In this document: positions 1-35,231 of the stretch, piece by piece
Numbering within the stretch: position 1 is the first letter of the stretch
How the letters are laid out: each line of letters opens with the position of its first letter
Source of the DNA: Caldilineaceae bacterium SB0662_bin_25
GTDB lineage: Bacteria; Chloroflexota; Anaerolineae; Caldilineales; Caldilineaceae
Assembly (NCBI GenBank): GCA_009840225.1
Contig: VXOE01000237.1
Coordinates: 1 to 35,231 of the forward strand
Length of the DNA: 35,231 nucleotides
Reading direction: 5' to 3'
Made by a program: the position numbers and the translations under genes
The notes under the pieces: generated by a model
What the model was told of the DNA's origin: nothing
Database searches by the model: none
The model's input: only the letters and a program-made list of their open reading frames with translations

Positions 1-51
1 TTCCACCCAGACAGACCGCACACAGTACACACACAAAACATGGCTTAGTAG

Positions 52-8192: not shown

Positions 8193-9497
8193 TCACACCG
8201 CCGGGCGTGTGCGCCAGACCCGTAATTGCTTCTTGCCGAGGATAAGCCACCAGAGTGTAACTGTCTCGGAGGTGAAGCCGGCAAGCAGCGCAGCCACCCC
8301 GAGTGTCGCGCCTTGTACTCCCAACAGCGGCAGGACCAGCAGGGCGATGAGAATAGCGCCGGTACGCATCGGCGCGCCAACTGCCATAGGTCGTGTGTCG
8401 CGCTCCATAAAGGCGATGCTGTGGAAATAGGCTCGGTGTACGACAACGAACGGAAAGAATGTGTAGATCTGGAGGGGCACTCGACTGAGCTCAGCCAAGG
8501 CGGGCGTTATTCCGATGACCTGCTCCAGAAGGACGGTCCGCAGCGGTGTCCAGAAGAGCAGTAGGCAAATGGCGGAGGCAGCAAGTCCACACCAGTAGGC
8601 GTAGCGAAGAAAGGGACGAAAAGACTGCAGCTCGGCGTAGAATGGGGGCACGAGCGCGCGCAGTTCATTCAGCCAGCGGTAGGTCCACTGTCCAAGCGTA
8701 TAGGCCACGGTCAGCGCCGCCATCGCTTCTGCACCGTGGGCGCCCCGCACCACGAACAGATTGATGAGCGGGCGGCTGGACTCCTGCATGAAATTCATGA
8801 GCGCAATCGGCCATGTAAAGCGGAAAAAAGCGGCATAGGTGATCGCGGGGCGATCGAGCGCGTCCGGGAGTCGGCCGAAGAAGCGCCAGAGATAGAAGAC
8901 GATAGTGATTGACTCGGTGAGCGTTGACGCGTAAAGAACGAGGATCGGCAGCCAGATAGGCCGGGCTCGAATCGAGTCGACCTGGAGAAGAGCAACGACC
9001 GCCAGAAGTCCGGCGGCAACGCTCAAGGCGGTGGCTACGCTGATTCTGCCTGTCTGCTTGCCGCGCGTCAGGACGCCCATGCCGAGCTGTGTTATACCCC
9101 GCAGCAGGGGCATCGGCAGCATTGACAACATCATAACGCGTACTCGTTCGCCTGTCTCCGAATCGACAGCGTGCAGGCCTTCGAGCAGATGGCGGCTGAT
9201 AGATGTGCCGCCGAGAAGCCACTGCACTGCCACCATGATCAGCGCCAGGCCGCTTACATAAGTCAAGCCTCGCCAGAAGTCTCGCTTGTCCTCCACCAAT
9301 ACCATCCCGGCATAGCGAAGTTGCGCCAGTGGGCTGGACAGAGACGTAACCAGACCCCAGGCCAGTCCAAAGGCGGCCAGTACGCGGATGGCGTCGGGCA
9401 TACGCGCCATCCCGCCGTTGATACTCTGCGCGCCGAACTCAAAGATTAGGATTGTCAGAACCAGGGGCAGGAGAAATCGAGTAAAGCGCAGGTACAT
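8193..9497 (-). CDS. ANKH-like multipass membrane transporter
   Basis: About 434 residues from the ATG at 9497 (an upstream in-frame start at 9584 would add 29 hydrophilic residues). The protein matches animal ANKH (progressive ankylosis protein, which exports ATP/pyrophosphate and citrate) across its length: FLLPLVLTILIFEFGAQSIN at the N-terminus, LAAFGLAWGL, VLVEDKRD, RPIWLPILVLYAS, SSRPLINLFVVRG, LPLQIYTFFPF-like VPLQIYTFFPF, and LGVQGATLGVAALLAGFTSE near the C-terminus each have a near-identical block in the human sequence as recalled. About ten to twelve hydrophobic segments fit the MATE/MOP-like fold of the family. It converges on the enolase gene with 28 bases between. Substrate in this bacterium is unknown; export of an organic anion or phosphorylated compound is a reasonable guess. 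Confidence 0.85.
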   Translation of the reverse strand: MYLRFTRFLLPLVLTILIFEFGAQSINGGMARMPDAIRVLAAFGLAWGLVTSLSSPLAQLRYAGMVLVEDKRDFWRGLTYVSGLALIMVAVQWLLGGTSISRHLLEGLHAVDSETGERVRVMMLSMLPMPLLRGITQLGMGVLTRGKQTGRISVATALSVAAGLLAVVALLQVDSIRARPIWLPILVLYASTLTESITIVFYLWRFFGRLPDALDRPAITYAAFFRFTWPIALMNFMQESSRPLINLFVVRGAHGAEAMAALTVAYTLGQWTYRWLNELRALVPPFYAELQSFRPFLRYAYWCGLAASAICLLLFWTPLRTVLLEQVIGITPALAELSRVPLQIYTFFPFVVVHRAYFHSIAFMERDTRPMAVGAPMRTGAILIALLVLPLLGVQGATLGVAALLAGFTSETVTLWWLILGKKQLRVWRTRPAV

Positions 9498-9965
9498 GAA
9501 GTGATGGTCAAACGGTGTATTGGGCGTAGAGGCTGACTGAAGGACCCTTCCGCCGCAGCTCGTCCTGTGAGTGTGACATGGCAAGGGCAGCCACAGAGAT
9601 TATCACACAGGGCCAGAGTGCGCGCAATGGAAATAGTAAGGAAGGGGAGGGAAGGCGCAACTGAGCGCTGACCTTGGCGGCCTTCGAATAGATTGCACAG
9701 AATCCAAAGAGTCTGGCCTGAAGAGTGAAGATTTTCAGGCGCTTTGCACGGATTGATCAGGACTGCCAGTTGACCTGTGGGGAAGGCGATTCTGTGCCGA
9801 ATGCCCCTCAACCTCCTGCGTGACCAGAAAAGCGCGAACATCGGCTTCGCGGCAGAACGCAAACGAGACGGCTTGAAAAACGACCATCTCCAGAAAATTC
9901 TCTTATGATGGGATGCCTGTGCCCTGCTCATTCGTGTAGGGGTCCCCAAATAGGCGCCGTTCATA
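9498..9965. other. gene-free stretch upstream of the ANKH-like gene
   Basis: Open frames here are short or lack any recognisable protein features. The region should contain the minus-strand promoter for the ANKH-like gene, but no clear -35/-10 pair was found. It leads into the decamer-repeat region on the right. Confidence 0.5.
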
Positions 9966-9974
9966 TGCTATAAT
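9966..9974 (+). promoter_or_regulatory. extended -10 element at the entrance of the repeat region
   Basis: TGCTATAAT is a perfect extended -10 (TGn + TATAAT) on the plus strand, about 45 bases before the first decamer-repeat unit and almost 1 kb before the amylase start. No good -35 precedes it, as is usual for extended -10 promoters. If active it would transcribe the repeat units as an untranslated RNA or a very long leader. Confidence 0.4.
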
Positions 9975-10018
9975 TGCCTCCGAATTCAAAAGCGCCTGCT
10001 ATGACCCTTAGGAGCCGT

Positions 10019-10262
10019 GGCTCTCGCCAAAAGAAAGTCTGAAGTCGAAGGAGGGCAGCTGTAAGTCTGTGAATTGCTCATACTTCATCTACCTTCTCCC
10101 ATCATTGACGGCGAGGAGACGTCTGCAAACTCAAGCACGTAATGGCCGAAAAAAAGGAACCACTCCGTCAAAGTACGACTTAATCCGTCATAATCCGTCG
10201 AAATCCGCCCCAACCCAGGGCAGTTGCCACGAATTGGGACGATCCTCGTCAAGCTCCCAGAT
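10019..10262 (+). repeat. decamer-array repeat unit 1
   Basis: First copy of a ~330-bp unit. It aligns with unit 2 at an offset of 332-333 bases: GAGGGC(A/C)GCTG(T/C)AAGT (10051), then GAATTGC(T/C)CAT, GACGGCGAGGA(G/A)ACGTCTGC(A/G)AACTCAAGC (10107 on). An A-run (GAAAAAAA, about 10148-10155) is followed by five decamers, 10161-10210, with pattern AATCCGTCRT in exact 10-base register. Then comes the conserved trailer AACCCAGGGCAGTTGC (10212 on) and CACGAATTGGGAC. No coding potential is evident. Confidence 0.7.
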
Positions 10263-10351
10263 TCGGACAGAAGTGCCCCTTGTGGGCACAATTCGTGTGC
10301 TGTAATGGCGCCCAAACTTGGAATCGTTTTCTCTGAACCTGAGTTTCCATG

Positions 10352-10600
10352 ACTTTCACCAGAAAAGAATCTGAGGGCGAACGAGGGCCGCTGCAAGTCG
10401 ATGAATTGCCCATGAACAGTCAACTCATATGCCATCAAAGACGGCGAGGAAACGTCTGCGAACTCAAGCATTTGAGTCAAAAAAAAAGAAATTCCCACGA
10501 CTTACCACGACTTGCCACTACTTACCACTACTTAACTCGACTTGACCTGCCCAAACCCAGGGCAGTTGCAACGAACTGGGACCGACCTTGTGAGGCTGCC
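10352..10600 (+). repeat. decamer-array repeat unit 2
   Basis: Second copy. The leader and trailer are conserved with unit 1, but the internal array has a different decamer (CCACGACTTA type, about six copies, 10495-10550, exact 10-base period). After the array the offset to unit 1 grows from about 333 to about 342, so this array is about one decamer longer. The A-run (nine A, near 10480) again precedes the array. The trailer is CCCAGGGCAGTTGCAACGAACTGGGAC.. at 10556 on. Confidence 0.7.
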
Positions 10601-10607
10601 AGTGTAG

Positions 10608-10703
10608 GATGGGAGAAACGTCTGAGAAGGCATGACAAATGTCCGAAAAAAGAAGGACGTGCCCTGCCCTGGATCGACTTGGATCGAGTTTGACCGACCT
10701 GGC
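10608..10703 (+). repeat. partial decamer-array repeat unit 3
   Basis: Partial third copy: GGGAGAAACGTCTGAGAAGG (10611 on) resembles the GAGGAAACGTCTGCGAAC leader, followed by an A-run (CCGAAAAAAG, about 10643) and about three decamers of TGGATCGACT type (10669-10702). It lacks a clear GGGCAGTT trailer. Between it and the amylase start (10937) there is no recognisable feature. Confidence 0.55.
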
Positions 10704-10936
10704 CTAGAAAAATGGCATCCAATTGGTTCACGGCCTCGTTAGGCCGCCTGAGTCGGGTAGCTACCCTTTGTGCGGGCCCTGCGTGGACGATTCCGGCGTC
10801 CGGACCTAGATGCTTATACCCTGGCCCCTCGTCCAAATGCATTGACAACCGCCTGTGCCTATGCAACAATCAGACTGAGATTCCAGGCGTCGCAGGCTTA
10901 AATGGCCTCGGCCTCCTCTCCTATCACCTTGGGACG

Positions 10937-12517
10937 ATGATGGGCGTCAAGACACCAGATTGGGTTAAGCACGCAGTTTTCTATCAGATCTTTCCGGACC
11001 GGTTCAGTCGCAGCCCCCGTTTGCAGCACCCTCCCGGAATCCAGTTTAAACCCTGGGGTGCGCCGCCTTCGGAACAGGGCTTCCAGGGCGGCGATCTTCT
11101 GGGAATTGTTGACCGCCTGGACTATCTGGAGAATTTAGGTGTCAATGCCCTCTACCTGAACCCAATATTCAGCTCGGCCTCGAATCACCGTTACCATACT
11201 TTTGACTACATGACGATAGACCCGCTGTTGGGCGGGGATGCCGCGTTTCGGGAGTTGTTGGACAGGGCGCATGAACGGGACATACGGGTCGTAATTGACG
11301 GCGTATTCAACCACTGCGGACGCGGCTTCTGGCCGTTCCACCACATCCTGGAATCTGGTAAAAGATCCCCTTATTTTGACTGGTTCCGTGTGAAGGGCTG
11401 GCCGCTGCGCCCCTATCACAGTAACGAGCAACAGCCGCACAACTACGCGGCCTGGTGGAATCTGCCCGCATTGCCAAAGCTGAACACCGTCAATCCCGGC
11501 ATGAGGCGCTATTTGCTGGAGGTTGCTCGACACTGGATCGAGTTCGGCGCAGACGGTTGGCGGTTGGACGTACCGGAGGAAATCGACGATCCGCCCTTCT
11601 GGCAGGAGTTCCGCCGTGTAGTGAAGAAGTCCAATGCCGACGCCTACACAGTAGGAGAGATCTGGCATGAGGCCGAGGAATGGCTGCAGGGAGACCGCTT
11701 TGACGCCGTGATGAACTATGTCCTGAGCCGAGCTGCCTACGGCTATTTCGGCGCGGAGACGGTGCCGCGCGACTACCGGCCCGGGGGCTATGCAATCGAG
11801 AAGCTGGATACGCTGGCGTTCGCAGCCGCGATCGAGCGGATGCTGGAACGCTATGACTGGCAGGTCGTGACCGCACAGTTCAACCTGTTGAACAGCCACG
11901 ATACGGCGCGCAATTTGTGGGCTCTGGACGGAGATGCCAGCGGTGTGCGGCTTTGCCTTCTGCTACAGATGACGCTGCCCGGTGCGCCCTGCATCTACTA
12001 CGGCGAAGAGATCGGCATGAACGGGGGCCCGGACCCGGGCTGCCGCGGGGCATTCCCTTGGGATGAGAAAGAGAGCTGGGATGGCGAGATGCTCGGCTTC
12101 TATCGTCAGGCGATTGCTCTGCGGCACAGCTACTCCGCGCTGCGTACCGGCGCATACAGGACCCTTGTCGCTGCCGGCGACGTCTTTGGATTCAGCCGAT
12201 CCATATGCGATGACCCTACCTCTTCTGACACGGCAACTGAGGACAATTGTCCGGCTGAAGAGCAGCTGATCGTCCTTTTTAACCGCGCAAGGTCAGAGGC
12301 GCGATTGGCAGTACCTCTCGCCGGCAAGGGCAGGGAGGGGGAATCCGACACTGCCTTGTCTTCGCCTACTTTCCGGGTCGTCTGGCCGCCGGGAGCCTCC
12401 GGGCAGACCTGTTGCGCTCGCAATGGTACTCTTTGGGACCTTACGATTCCGCCCAGGGAAGCGCTAATCCTTGAAGGTGCGGGCTCGTCGCAGTCCGCTG
12501 CTTCGGAAGAGGGGTGA
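10937..12517 (+). CDS. GH13 alpha-amylase family glycosidase (neopullulanase/cyclomaltodextrinase-like)
   Basis: About 526 residues from the ATG pair at 10937/10940; the frame is open from 10712, but the extra 75 residues are unlike any family member. It hydrolyses or transfers alpha-glucosidic bonds in maltodextrins or related glucans. The TIM barrel starts with WVKHAVFYQIFPDRFSR; region I is DGVFNH (121-126); the nucleophile Asp211 sits in GWRLDVPEE; the acid/base Glu241 in VGEIWHE; the transition-state Asp322 in NSHDT; and PGAPCIYYGEEIGM follows. There is no signal peptide, so the enzyme is probably cytoplasmic and acts on imported oligosaccharides. A C-terminal beta domain is present with a low-complexity insert (DDPTSSDTATED). 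The stop is one base before the next start, so it is co-translated with the lipid kinase. Confidence 0.9.
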   Translation: MMGVKTPDWVKHAVFYQIFPDRFSRSPRLQHPPGIQFKPWGAPPSEQGFQGGDLLGIVDRLDYLENLGVNALYLNPIFSSASNHRYHTFDYMTIDPLLGGDAAFRELLDRAHERDIRVVIDGVFNHCGRGFWPFHHILESGKRSPYFDWFRVKGWPLRPYHSNEQQPHNYAAWWNLPALPKLNTVNPGMRRYLLEVARHWIEFGADGWRLDVPEEIDDPPFWQEFRRVVKKSNADAYTVGEIWHEAEEWLQGDRFDAVMNYVLSRAAYGYFGAETVPRDYRPGGYAIEKLDTLAFAAAIERMLERYDWQVVTAQFNLLNSHDTARNLWALDGDASGVRLCLLLQMTLPGAPCIYYGEEIGMNGGPDPGCRGAFPWDEKESWDGEMLGFYRQAIALRHSYSALRTGAYRTLVAAGDVFGFSRSICDDPTSSDTATEDNCPAEEQLIVLFNRARSEARLAVPLAGKGREGESDTALSSPTFRVVWPPGASGQTCCARNGTLWDLTIPPREALILEGAGSSQSAASEEG

Positions 12518-33781: not shown

Positions 33782-34093
33782 AATTTTGGTGTCATTTATT
33801 TTTGGTGAGGTCGAAGAGGAATCATATCTTGCGGCTGCCGAATTGACCATGTCATTCCGCGGCAACCCCAGGGCATACGCGTCTCATTGGGAGAGCGTTC
33901 TCAGGAAATTGTCAGTAGTCCAGCCGGATCGTTTACCTTTGGCAGGACTACCGGTTTTGGCACTTTTCTTCTGGCGCAGGGTGTTGAAAGCCAAGCGGTG
34001 CAAGACGGCCAGGTTGTCTTGCGCATGGCCGTTGCCCGTGTGACTGTCGTCCACATTCATTGTGGGTTGTTGGAGTCAGATTCATCTTGATGT
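33782..34093. other. gene-free stretch upstream of the sugar operon
   Basis: No convincing gene. A TTG-initiated frame at 33887-34090 gives 67 residues, with an internal SPAGSFTFGRTTGFGTFLL segment that looks somewhat protein-like (possible gene remnant), but it lacks a ribosome site and family match. Confidence 0.4.
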
Positions 34094-34351
34094 TGGCGCA
34101 GGCTTTCTCATATGTATGTTGGACGAGAGTTTATGAGCGTTTACGAGTGTTTGCAAGCGTTGACGTGTTGTCTGAACTGCATTTTTTGTGATTTATATGA
34201 TGGGCTGCAGTTAGGGCCTTGCCGGTGCAGGTTGTCTCGCACGAGCGTTGGACTAGAGTTGATGAGAGTTTACGAGCGTTTGCGTGTTGTCTGAGTGCGA
34301 TTCATACAGTTTGTGTGATGGGCTGCAGTTAGGGCCTCGCCGGCGCAGGCG
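34094..34351 (+). repeat. tandem repeat, unit ~129 bp, two copies plus fragment
   Basis: Copy 1 (about 34094-34222) and copy 2 (about 34223-34351) share GG(C/T)GCAGG at the left end, TTGGAC(G/T)AGAGTT, GAGTTTAC-type decamers, GTGTTGTCTGA, and GATGGGCTGCAGTTAGGGCC. Each contains its own 10-base-period array: in copy 1, GAGAGTTTAT, GAGCGTTTAC, GAGTGTTTGC, AAGCGTTGAC from 34126. Copy 2 has one decamer fewer. A third fragment (CGTTCAACTGTTTGCGTGCG, 34367 on) follows. Confidence 0.7.
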
Positions 34352-34418
34352 GGGCCGTTCAACTGTTTGCGTGCGCTGTACGAGAGTTGTACGTACTCTG
34401 ACATGGTGGGACGAGACG

Positions 34419-34580
34419 GTCGGGTCATGTCGGGTCAAGTCGGGTTATGTCGGCAAAAGTCGGGTGAAGTCGGGCGAAAAAATTTTTATGGCCCTTTTTT
34501 GCCGTTACGGTTTTGCATCAGTTTTTTCGTTTCCGGAGCCGACTCCCGGTACTGGCAGCCTCGCCACGACTCTCTCACAG
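34419..34580 (-). repeat. decamer-array repeat unit 4, inverted orientation
   Basis: On the plus strand six decamers of type TCGGGTCAAG run from 34419 to 34477 in exact 10-base register, followed by GAAAAAATTTTT. On the minus strand this reads AT-run then CCCGACTTCA-type decamers, matching the order (A-run, then CCACGACTTA decamers) of unit 2. Farther right, the minus strand has GGCGAGGCTGCCAGT (around 34551-34565), like GTGAGGCTGCCAGT near 10590. So it is a diverged copy in the opposite orientation. Confidence 0.6.
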
Positions 34581-34639
34581 ACGCCAGACTCACGCCGGTC
34601 GGCCGGCGGTTGGGGGCGGTGTGTCGTGTCCGGACGCTA

Positions 34640-34677
34640 AGAGTCGGGCTAAGTCGGGTCAGTGCGGGCAGTTTACC
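34640..34677 (+). repeat. short decamer array with GGGCAGTT trailer
   Basis: Three decamers of AGTCGGGCTA type (34642-34671) lead into GCGGGCAGTTTACC. The GGGCAGTT(G/T/A)(A)CC motif also trails units 1 and 2 and reappears at 34738-34749 (GGGCAGTTACCA), which ties these sites into one family. Confidence 0.5.
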
Positions 34678-35110
34678 CTTCTGTGGTCCTTCGCGTTTTG
34701 CCTCGCACACGTTTCCTTGCTGTCTTAGTTGGGTACTGGGCAGTTACCAGTCCTGGAAGGGTCCTCCTTCGCCTTCGGATTCCCCGCCAGAGAGAGTCAT
34801 GGCTTGATGACAGTACGCTCTCGGTCATGCCTTTTCGCATTCTGGCGCAGGGATATTATATCACTGTTTTTGATGCAATTTCCGGGTGCAACCCAAATTT
34901 GGGGTGGGGATAGTCTGGCGACTTTTGGAAAGACGCAGGGGAGGCGCCAGGCCGGACATTATCGCGGGTTCCGTCAGTTAGGGAGGATGCGAAGGCAGGC
35001 ACAGGGCCGGCACCTGTGGGGATTTGATGGGACTGGCGCGAAGTGGTTTGGCTAAACCCCTTCGAGTAGGCACCCGTCCGAATGTCGACACCAGGTCGAT
35101 GAGGGATGTT
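34678..35110. other. gene-free stretch near the contig end
   Basis: Only short frames without recognisable protein features. Contains the GGGCAGTTACCA copy at 34738 and nothing else identified. Confidence 0.4.
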
Positions 35111-35231
35111 GTTGGGGGGGGCGTTGGGGGGGGGGGGGGGGGGGGGGGGGGGGCGGGGGCGGGGGGCGCGGGCGCCCGCGCGCCCCGGCCGCGGGGCCCG
35201 GGGGCGCGGGCACCGAGAGCACAAGACAAAA
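35111..35231. other. poly-G/GC-only low-complexity end, probable sequencing or assembly artefact
   Basis: About 27 consecutive G (interrupted earlier by CGTT) are followed by ~70 bases of almost only G and C. This is unlike the rest of the window, and unbroken G runs at a contig end are typical of two-colour Illumina no-signal calls. It should not be interpreted biologically. Confidence 0.7.

What the first reader, a model, noticed from the sequence alone, without database searches (positions are those of the whole stretch)
10019..10703. Repeat family with conserved flanks and a variable array of exactly 10-bp-period repeats
Two ~330-bp units and a partial third stand head to tail. Leader (GACGGCGAGGARACGTCTGC) and trailer (CCCAGGGCAGTTGC) are conserved, but the internal decamers differ between copies (AATCCGTCRT, CCACGACTTA, TGGATCGACT), and the array in unit 2 is about one decamer longer. 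An A-run precedes each array. Conserved borders with replaced, length-variable decamers suggest array turnover rather than simple duplication. A period near one helical turn would place every repeat on the same DNA face, so a phased protein-binding or bending site is possible. I know of no described element with this layout.
Basis: partly seen in the sequence, partly recalled or inferred. Interest (0 to 1): 0.75.

Follow-up and report, generated by a model that had tools for sequence, protein, structure and literature searches.

The report
Transposon-derived elements carrying phased decamer arrays
The 10-base repeats sit inside crippled jumping-DNA elements that have spread in front of many genes of a Caldilineaceae (Chloroflexota) genus, and the core of the repeat is preserved as if a protein bound it once per helical turn; what it does is not yet known.

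Summary
Two ~333-bp units and a partial third carry arrays with an exact 10-bp period, and array length changes by whole decamers. Leader copies occur in 10 of 17 genomes of the genus (16-33 each in eight; lower bounds). The units belong to non-autonomous elements derived from an ISAs1-family insertion sequence. A full-length 1253-bp parent with the same ends and a perfect 10-bp target duplication is in the same genome. Three array-bearing elements elsewhere have 9-10 of 10 bases duplicated; the two in this window show no clear duplication. EF-G and AccC loci show presence/absence between relatives. In tandem gene pairs 17 of 17 sites point with the genes; none of 42 sites is convergent. Of arrays followed by an inverted-repeat copy, 39 of 42 end 14, 24 or 34 bp before it. 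Neighbouring decamers differ at 7-8% for the core A-C against 50-58% at two spacer positions. I infer a phased protein-binding array beside IS ends; binder and function are unproven.

The parts
9783..9902 (+). Remnant of the ISAs1 transposase C-terminus (about 40 residues)
   Evidence: 64% identity over 39 residues to the L310 transposase, E 1e-13
9912..9926 (+). Right inverted repeat, GATGCCTGTGCCCTG
   Evidence: 13 of 15 to the parent right end
9966..9974 (+). Extended -10 promoter motif TGCTATAAT of unit 1 (consensus match only)
   Evidence: position; such motifs lie upstream of most arrays at preferred distances
10010..10118 (+). Leader copy of unit 1
   Evidence: model R1 match, E 1.5e-23
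10149..10155 (+). A-run of unit 1
10160..10215 (+). Decamer array 1 (CCGTC type)
10216..10230 (+).
   Evidence: 12 of 15 to the parent left end
10298..10306 (+). Degenerate extended -10 motif of unit 2, TGCTGTAAT
10343..10451 (+). Leader copy of unit 2
   Evidence: model R1 match, E 3e-23
10479..10487 (+). A-run of unit 2
10492..10557 (+). Decamer array 2 (CCACGACTTA / CCACTACTTA type)
   Evidence: last core ends 14 bp before the inverted-repeat copy
10558..10572 (+). Left inverted-repeat copy, CAGGGCAGTTGCAAC
   Evidence: 13 of 15
10646..10651 (+). A-run of partial unit 3
10670..10704 (+). Decamer array 3 (TGGATCGACT type)
   Evidence: one decamer shorter in G009 by direct reading
10705..10719 (+). 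Relic of a left inverted-repeat copy (weak)
   Evidence: 10 of 15
10809..10823 (+). Right inverted repeat, GATGCTTATACCCTG; right end of the composite
   Evidence: 13 of 15; next to it lies the amylase promoter kept in relatives without the units
33869..34886 (-). Second element in the window, upstream of a solute-binding-protein gene: left repeat 34872-34886 (12 of 15), right repeat 33869-33883 (14 of 15), leader 34713-34809, transposase remnant about 33887-34021
34418..34474 (-). Decamer array of the second element (CCCGACTTNA type)
34641..34663 (-). Short decamer array of the second element (two to three units)
   Evidence: direct reading

Best explanation
The repeats are part of non-autonomous transposable elements derived from an ISAs1-family insertion sequence. 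Elements keep the IS ends (CAGGGCAATTGCATC ... GATGCGTATGCCCTG) and replace the transposase gene by a non-coding interior of about 0.9 to 3 kb: an inward promoter motif, a leader, an A-run, decamer arrays and often the last codons of the transposase. Modules (spacer, A-run, decamers, inverted-repeat copy) have been amplified in tandem, and arrays gain and lose whole decamers, presumably by slippage or unequal recombination. Shown here: IS ends, parent IS, target duplications in several elements, presence/absence between relatives, whole-decamer steps, fixed register to the inverted repeat, conserved core, one-way placement upstream of genes. Inferred: a DNA-binding protein (the transposase or a host factor) reads the core GAC(A/T)T or a close variant once per helical turn, on one face of the DNA beside the inverted repeat, shaping the transposon-end complex and perhaps transcription of the gene downstream. 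No binding, transcription or effect was tested.
For: Parent IS with the same ends and a perfect 10-bp duplication, ISAs1 transposase at 443 bits against a cut-off of 70. Array-bearing elements with 10/10, 10/10 and 9/10 duplications. Sharp left ends with unrelated flanks and a common right end in 8 of 17 elements. Presence/absence at AccC and EF-G. 35 of 41 arrays have a correctly ordered end within 3.5 kb, 14 both; 105 left-repeat matches against 9 in shuffled sequence. 39 of 42 arrays followed by a repeat copy end 14, 24 or 34 bp before it. Core spacings 287 of 306 at 10 and 13 at 20, none at 8, 9, 11 or 12. Core A-C mismatch 7-8% against 50-58% at spacer positions 1-2, in modules found without using the core. 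Placement.
Against: Neither element in this window has a clear 10-bp duplication (2/10 and 1/10), and no left repeat was found for the first composite (best 11 of 15). 10 of 17 end pairings match at 5/10 or less. The parent has no array, so arrays are not needed for its ends. 6 of 41 arrays lack a correctly ordered end, and some lie before a terminase-like gene without the IS ends. Five array-rich genomes show no PF13808 match. The fixed register and period may reflect common descent. Other core positions vary more: 23-27% at three of them.
Confidence: 0.6

Rival explanations
1. The arrays are a functionless minisatellite trapped in a MITE-like element; period and similarity come from slippage and spread of the element.
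For: Whole-decamer length changes; BrickBuilt precedent; decamer sequence differs between arrays; downstream genes share no theme.
Against: Core A-C conserved far more than spacer positions within arrays; no off-register spacing at array edges; the core is shared by arrays whose spacers differ.
Confidence: 0.22
2. Operator arrays for a host regulator that binds 10-bp direct repeats head to tail, as OmpR/PhoB-type response regulators do (recalled), giving a spread-out regulon.
For: Exact 10-bp direct repeats with a conserved core; upstream, co-directional placement; arrays 35-45 bp before the -10 motif of a terminase-like gene in three loci.
Against: Downstream genes are diverse; promoter motifs mostly lie upstream of the array, not downstream; no regulator identified; a search for decameric direct repeats with response regulators gave no papers.
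Confidence: 0.12
3. The arrays act in RNA as long unstructured leaders, for example Rho-loading (rut-like) sites between element promoter and gene.
For: Element regions are long (median 1708 against 363 bp) and C>G on the sense strand (C/G 1.36, n=24, against 1.00, n=46); about one YC per 10 nt and C 0.30 against G 0.20 in 31 arrays; RhoTermPredict's criteria of C>G and regularly spaced C (passages).
Against: Window element C/G is 1.01; C spacing in the predictor is 11-13 nt; Rho would not need strict 10-nt spacing (my judgement); no transcript data.
Confidence: 0.08
4. A structured non-coding RNA, riboswitch or short protein.
For: Conserved leader behind a promoter motif; a 114-aa ATG frame in unit 2; RNAalifold energy of whole type A units about 2 s.d. 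better than 30 column shuffles but not beyond the best one, and that of a 9-sequence sub-family better than all 30.
Against: Type A leader worse than shuffles; single-sequence z-scores average +0.33 (leader) and -0.48 (whole unit) in 23 copies; no Rfam match at gathering in the window and five loci; relaxed search gave none and one chance hit at E 0.25; no Pfam match for the 114-aa frame, which is stopped in other copies (direct reading).
Confidence: 0.03
5. The arrays are stacked 10-bp target duplications made by the ISAs1 transposase (see the section on the most novel reading).
For: Period equals the target-duplication length; arrays abut inverted-repeat copies in register.
Against: No right end with the matching decamer beyond it in the pairings tried; target duplications found do not resemble the core.
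Confidence: 0.06

Closest known systems
ISAs1 family insertion sequences
   Same: Inverted repeat starting CAGGG, 10-bp direct repeat (PMC11946415, passages), ISAs1 transposase in the parent and its remnant in the elements
   Different: The elements lack a transposase gene and carry promoter motifs, leader and decamer arrays that the parent lacks
BrickBuilt, a MITE with an internal minisatellite in Porphyromonas gingivalis (PMC4596501; abstract, outline and passages)
   Same: Non-coding, multi-copy, intergenic, with leader and tail around tandem repeats and inverted-repeat ends; promoter activity shown there
   Different: 23-nt repeats there, 10-nt here with a conserved core locked to inverted-repeat copies; BrickBuilt duplications vary in length, here 10 bp
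Intergenic TAACTGA heptamer arrays of Beggiatoaceae and cyanobacteria (PMC4679880; abstract, outline and passages)
   Same: Short direct repeats, mostly intergenic and in forward orientation upstream of functionally unrelated genes, indels in unit steps
   Different: 7-nt repeats close to start codons, without described IS ends
Tandem direct-repeat operators of OmpR/PhoB-type regulators (recalled)
   Same: Head-to-tail direct repeats of about one helical turn
   Different: No regulator found; arrays lie beside IS ends and mostly downstream of the promoter motif

Membership tests
ISAs1-derived element | Terminal inverted repeats of 14-22 bp starting CAGGG | tested here: met
   Elements and parent share 15-bp ends; in the window 12-14 of 15 matches, but no left repeat found for the first composite
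ISAs1-derived element | 10-bp direct repeat at the insertion site | tested here: met
   Parent 10/10; array-bearing elements 10/10, 10/10, 9/10; three more at 7-8/10, two of them the same site in two species; ten pairings at 5/10 or less, both window elements among them
ISAs1-derived element | ISAs1 DDE transposase | tested here: met
   Parent L310. The array elements keep only the C-terminal remnant, hence non-autonomous
MITE | Short (about 50-1000 bp), no coding capacity, inverted repeats and target duplications (definition) | tested here: inconclusive
   Non-coding with ends and duplications, but 924-3113 bp long, the longer ones composite
Minisatellite-bearing MITE (BrickBuilt-like) | Tandem repeat inside an element with inverted-repeat ends | tested here: met
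   14 of 41 arrays have both ends in order, 35 at least one
OmpR/PhoB-type operator | Cognate response regulator binds the repeats | not testable with these tools
   No binding data; no regulator search was made
Rho utilisation site | C>G, regularly spaced C, Rho-dependent 3' ends | tested here: inconclusive
   Composition partly fits; termination not testable
Structured RNA / Rfam family | Match or conserved structure | tested here: not met
   No gathering match; no consistent folding signal

The most novel reading that the evidence does not exclude
The array period is 10 bp because the ISAs1 transposase cuts its target 10 bp apart: arrays that abut inverted-repeat copies in fixed register would be built or lengthened by the transposase itself, each abortive insertion or insertion-excision beside an IS end adding one 10-bp target duplication. 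The arrays would then be a record of transposase activity and a self-made, helically phased binding platform. Against it: in the pairings tried no right end carries the matching decamer on its far side, and observed target duplications do not resemble the core.
Probability: 0.07. Interest if true: 0.85.

Novelty: new variant of a known kind. Interest (0 to 1): 0.5.

Why it matters
These elements place about 0.9-3 kb of promoter-bearing, phased-repeat DNA upstream of operons, including housekeeping ones such as EF-G, and close relatives differ in having them. If the decamers bind a protein, this is a natural helically phased binding array tied to a transposon end, which would make testable how ISAs1 transposases organise their ends and how minisatellites carried by mobile elements affect neighbouring genes.

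Tried and rejected
RNA structure, riboswitch, Rfam: no consistent support; the partial signals are listed under the rivals. Coding leader: frame open in some copies, stopped in others (direct reading; no Pfam match). Bending: arrays exceed shuffles (mean z 2.27, n=31), as any 10-bp repeat may, and modestly (parameters recalled). Regulon: 28 of 30 downstream proteins have Pfam matches and share no theme, though several are solute-binding proteins; L260 and L262 proved to be transposase remnants. Insertion of elements into existing arrays: right ends read are not followed by array remainders. An early idea of mine, a closing RNA helix between 5' end and trailer, was dropped after and after the trailer proved to be an IS end. 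One search hits in unrelated taxa were not studied and may be chance or coding. No regulator and no PF01609-type transposase search was made.

Limits of counts. R1 scored 150 of 1151-1725 first-look candidates per genome, so copy numbers are lower bounds. For some searches I used the listed matches: 25 of 27 in G017 and 12 of 16 in G019. Sites were chosen by me from earlier calls (20 own, 14 G017, 8 G019); some are orthologous and not independent. Gene calls are from my own codon score. The first orientation count holds one reversed-motif artefact row and several short called genes; one search uses genes of 150 residues or more. Left ends were found with a pattern that includes the end and the promoter motif; three pairs of the 18 are the same site in two species. 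Core spacings come from arrays found with a 10-bp expression, so the informative part is the edges. The p-values treat non-independent pairs as independent. Links between handles and named records (G017 = OX638330.1, G019 = OY282376.1, G005 = MPML01) rest on equal contig lengths.

Full report
What is there. Between an ANKH-like gene (8193-9584, minus) and an alpha-amylase gene (10937-12517, plus; Pfam) lie two units 333 bp apart and a partial third. Each has a leader, an A-run and decamers with an exact 10-bp period; units 1 and 2 end in CCCAGGGCAGTTGC. Tandem Repeats Finder confirms the first two arrays and finds one more at 34419-34474, minus strand. Array segments are 55-56 and 66 nt in units 1 and 2. 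Orthologous segments are 65 and 56 in G009, 75 and 66 in G016, and 55 for array 1 in G011, where unit 2 is missing; G008 has a longer array 2. Turnover is in whole decamers, and units can be lost.

How widespread. The own genome gives 67 array hits against 6 for the reversed control. In the family, 12 of 46 genomes have hits: 11 of 17 of the own genus and 1 of 29 of other genera; control hits were 0 in the genus and one each in two other genomes. In the phylum 5 of 400 genomes have an exact hit, the own among them and the rest with one or two. A sequence-only model of the 113-nt leader finds copies in 10 of 17 genomes: G000 26, G005 21, G006 2, G008 19, G009 25, G011 19, G015 1, G016 33, G017 27, G019 16; none in 7 (lower bounds). 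G018 has arrays but no leader match.

What it is. Upstream of AccC the units are present in G000, G009 and G016 and not detected in the other 12 genomes with a match. Upstream of EF-G they are present in G000 and G009; 14 genomes show none in the stretch held (1500 bp, 337 bp in G014), and G018 has different arrays. The EF-G insertion lies between the neighbouring gene and the native promoter. Eighteen left ends share CAGG-CAAT-T/C-GC from one base with flanks that are unrelated except in three orthologous pairs. In 8 of 17 elements similarity ends at the same right end, -CCTG. The own genome holds a full-length IS with these ends (L310, 1253 bp). Its transposase is ISAs1 family, 443 bits against a cut-off of 70, and its 10-bp duplication is perfect. 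Array-bearing elements L266 and L258 have 10/10 duplications and L058 9/10. Three more pairings have 7-8/10, two of them one site in two species. The other ten of 17 pairings have 5/10 or less, both window elements among them, and some pair ends that need not belong together. ISAs1 elements are described with a 14-22 bp inverted repeat starting CAGGG and a 10-bp direct repeat (PMC11946415, passages). Inside the right end, elements encode the end of the transposase; the window remnant at 9783-9902 is 64% identical over 39 residues. So the trailer is the IS inverted repeat.

How the array sits. Of 64 arrays, 42 are followed within 80 bp by an inverted-repeat copy, and in 39 of these 42 the last core ends 14, 24 or 34 bp before it. 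Consecutive cores are 10 bp apart in 287 of 306 cases, 20 in 13, and 28-34 in 6; none is at 8, 9, 11 or 12. In 66 modules found by A-run and inverted repeat alone, 173 of 198 core matches fall in one register, 21 in the next one (which I attribute to a one-base difference at the repeat) and 4 elsewhere. Neighbouring decamers differ at 7-8% for core A-C, 20-37% at most other positions and 50-58% at positions 1 and 2. A plain minisatellite would not be expected to give this contrast, but common descent may explain the register.

Placement. Of 42 sites, 17 lie in tandem gene pairs, all pointing with the genes; 18 lie in divergent pairs; none is convergent or reversed; 7 are at contig edges, 6 of them with a co-directional gene downstream. 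In the earlier count 45 of 47 arrays with a downstream gene were co-directional, both exceptions in L121. Divergent pairs are enriched: 18 of 35 against 11 of 183 other pairs. Element regions are long, and C- and A-rich on the sense strand. Extended -10 motifs lie upstream of most arrays at preferred distances. Selection against reversed promoters, or a benefit of forward ones, would both explain this.

How it most likely works. Shown: mobile origin, ends, duplications in several elements, whole-decamer turnover, register, conserved core, one-way placement. Inferred: a protein reads the core on one DNA face beside the inverted repeat, the transposase or a host factor, so that the amplified modules form an enlarged transposon end. 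An effect on amylase or other genes is a guess. Against a pure transposition role: the parent has no array; arrays occur without the IS ends near a terminase-like gene; five array-rich genomes show no PF13808 match.

What is known. The nearest kind is BrickBuilt, a MITE with a 23-nt minisatellite, intergenic and with promoter activity (PMC4596501; abstract, outline and passages). Heptamer arrays upstream of unrelated genes are described in Beggiatoaceae and cyanobacteria (PMC4679880; abstract, outline and passages). My searches (open-licence PMC papers only, the rest seen as listings, of which only the top rows were shown) listed no paper on decamer-array ISAs1 elements in Chloroflexota. I call it a new variant of a known kind.

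Verdict. The claim of an undescribed layout shrinks, since the borders are IS ends; the hint of phasing gains weight from the core and register data.

Noticed in passing
L256, L257, L258, L264, L270, L275, L276 and others; window about 34118-34290 (minus, direct reading): A second 10-bp array type, CTCGTAAACG/CTCATGATCT, in tandem modules of about 130 bp, usually nearer the gene than the CGACTT arrays.
   Followed up: partly
L061, L064, L102, L112: Decamer arrays with the same A-run stand just upstream of the promoter motif of a terminase-small-subunit-like gene (phrog_6299 for L064), followed in L061 and L112 by a gene that looks like a terminase large subunit (recalled motif).
   Followed up: partly
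L049, L050 (C192, C375): In some arrays an inverted decamer precedes the direct array, forming a hairpin with an A-run loop (direct reading).
   Followed up: no
window 10349-10693: A 114-aa ATG frame runs through leader and array of unit 2, without family match; stopped in other copies, so not taken as a gene.
   Followed up: yes
window 35114-35172: Poly-G stretch at the contig end, probably an assembly artefact.
   Followed up: no
G015, G018 (L121, L167, L294): Other decamer types (CGACATTGGN, GGGGACATTT) with little or no leader match; the only reversed placement (L121) is among them.
   Followed up: no
L256, L270: Elements upstream of DUF1016/YhcG nuclease-like genes in two species.
   Followed up: no
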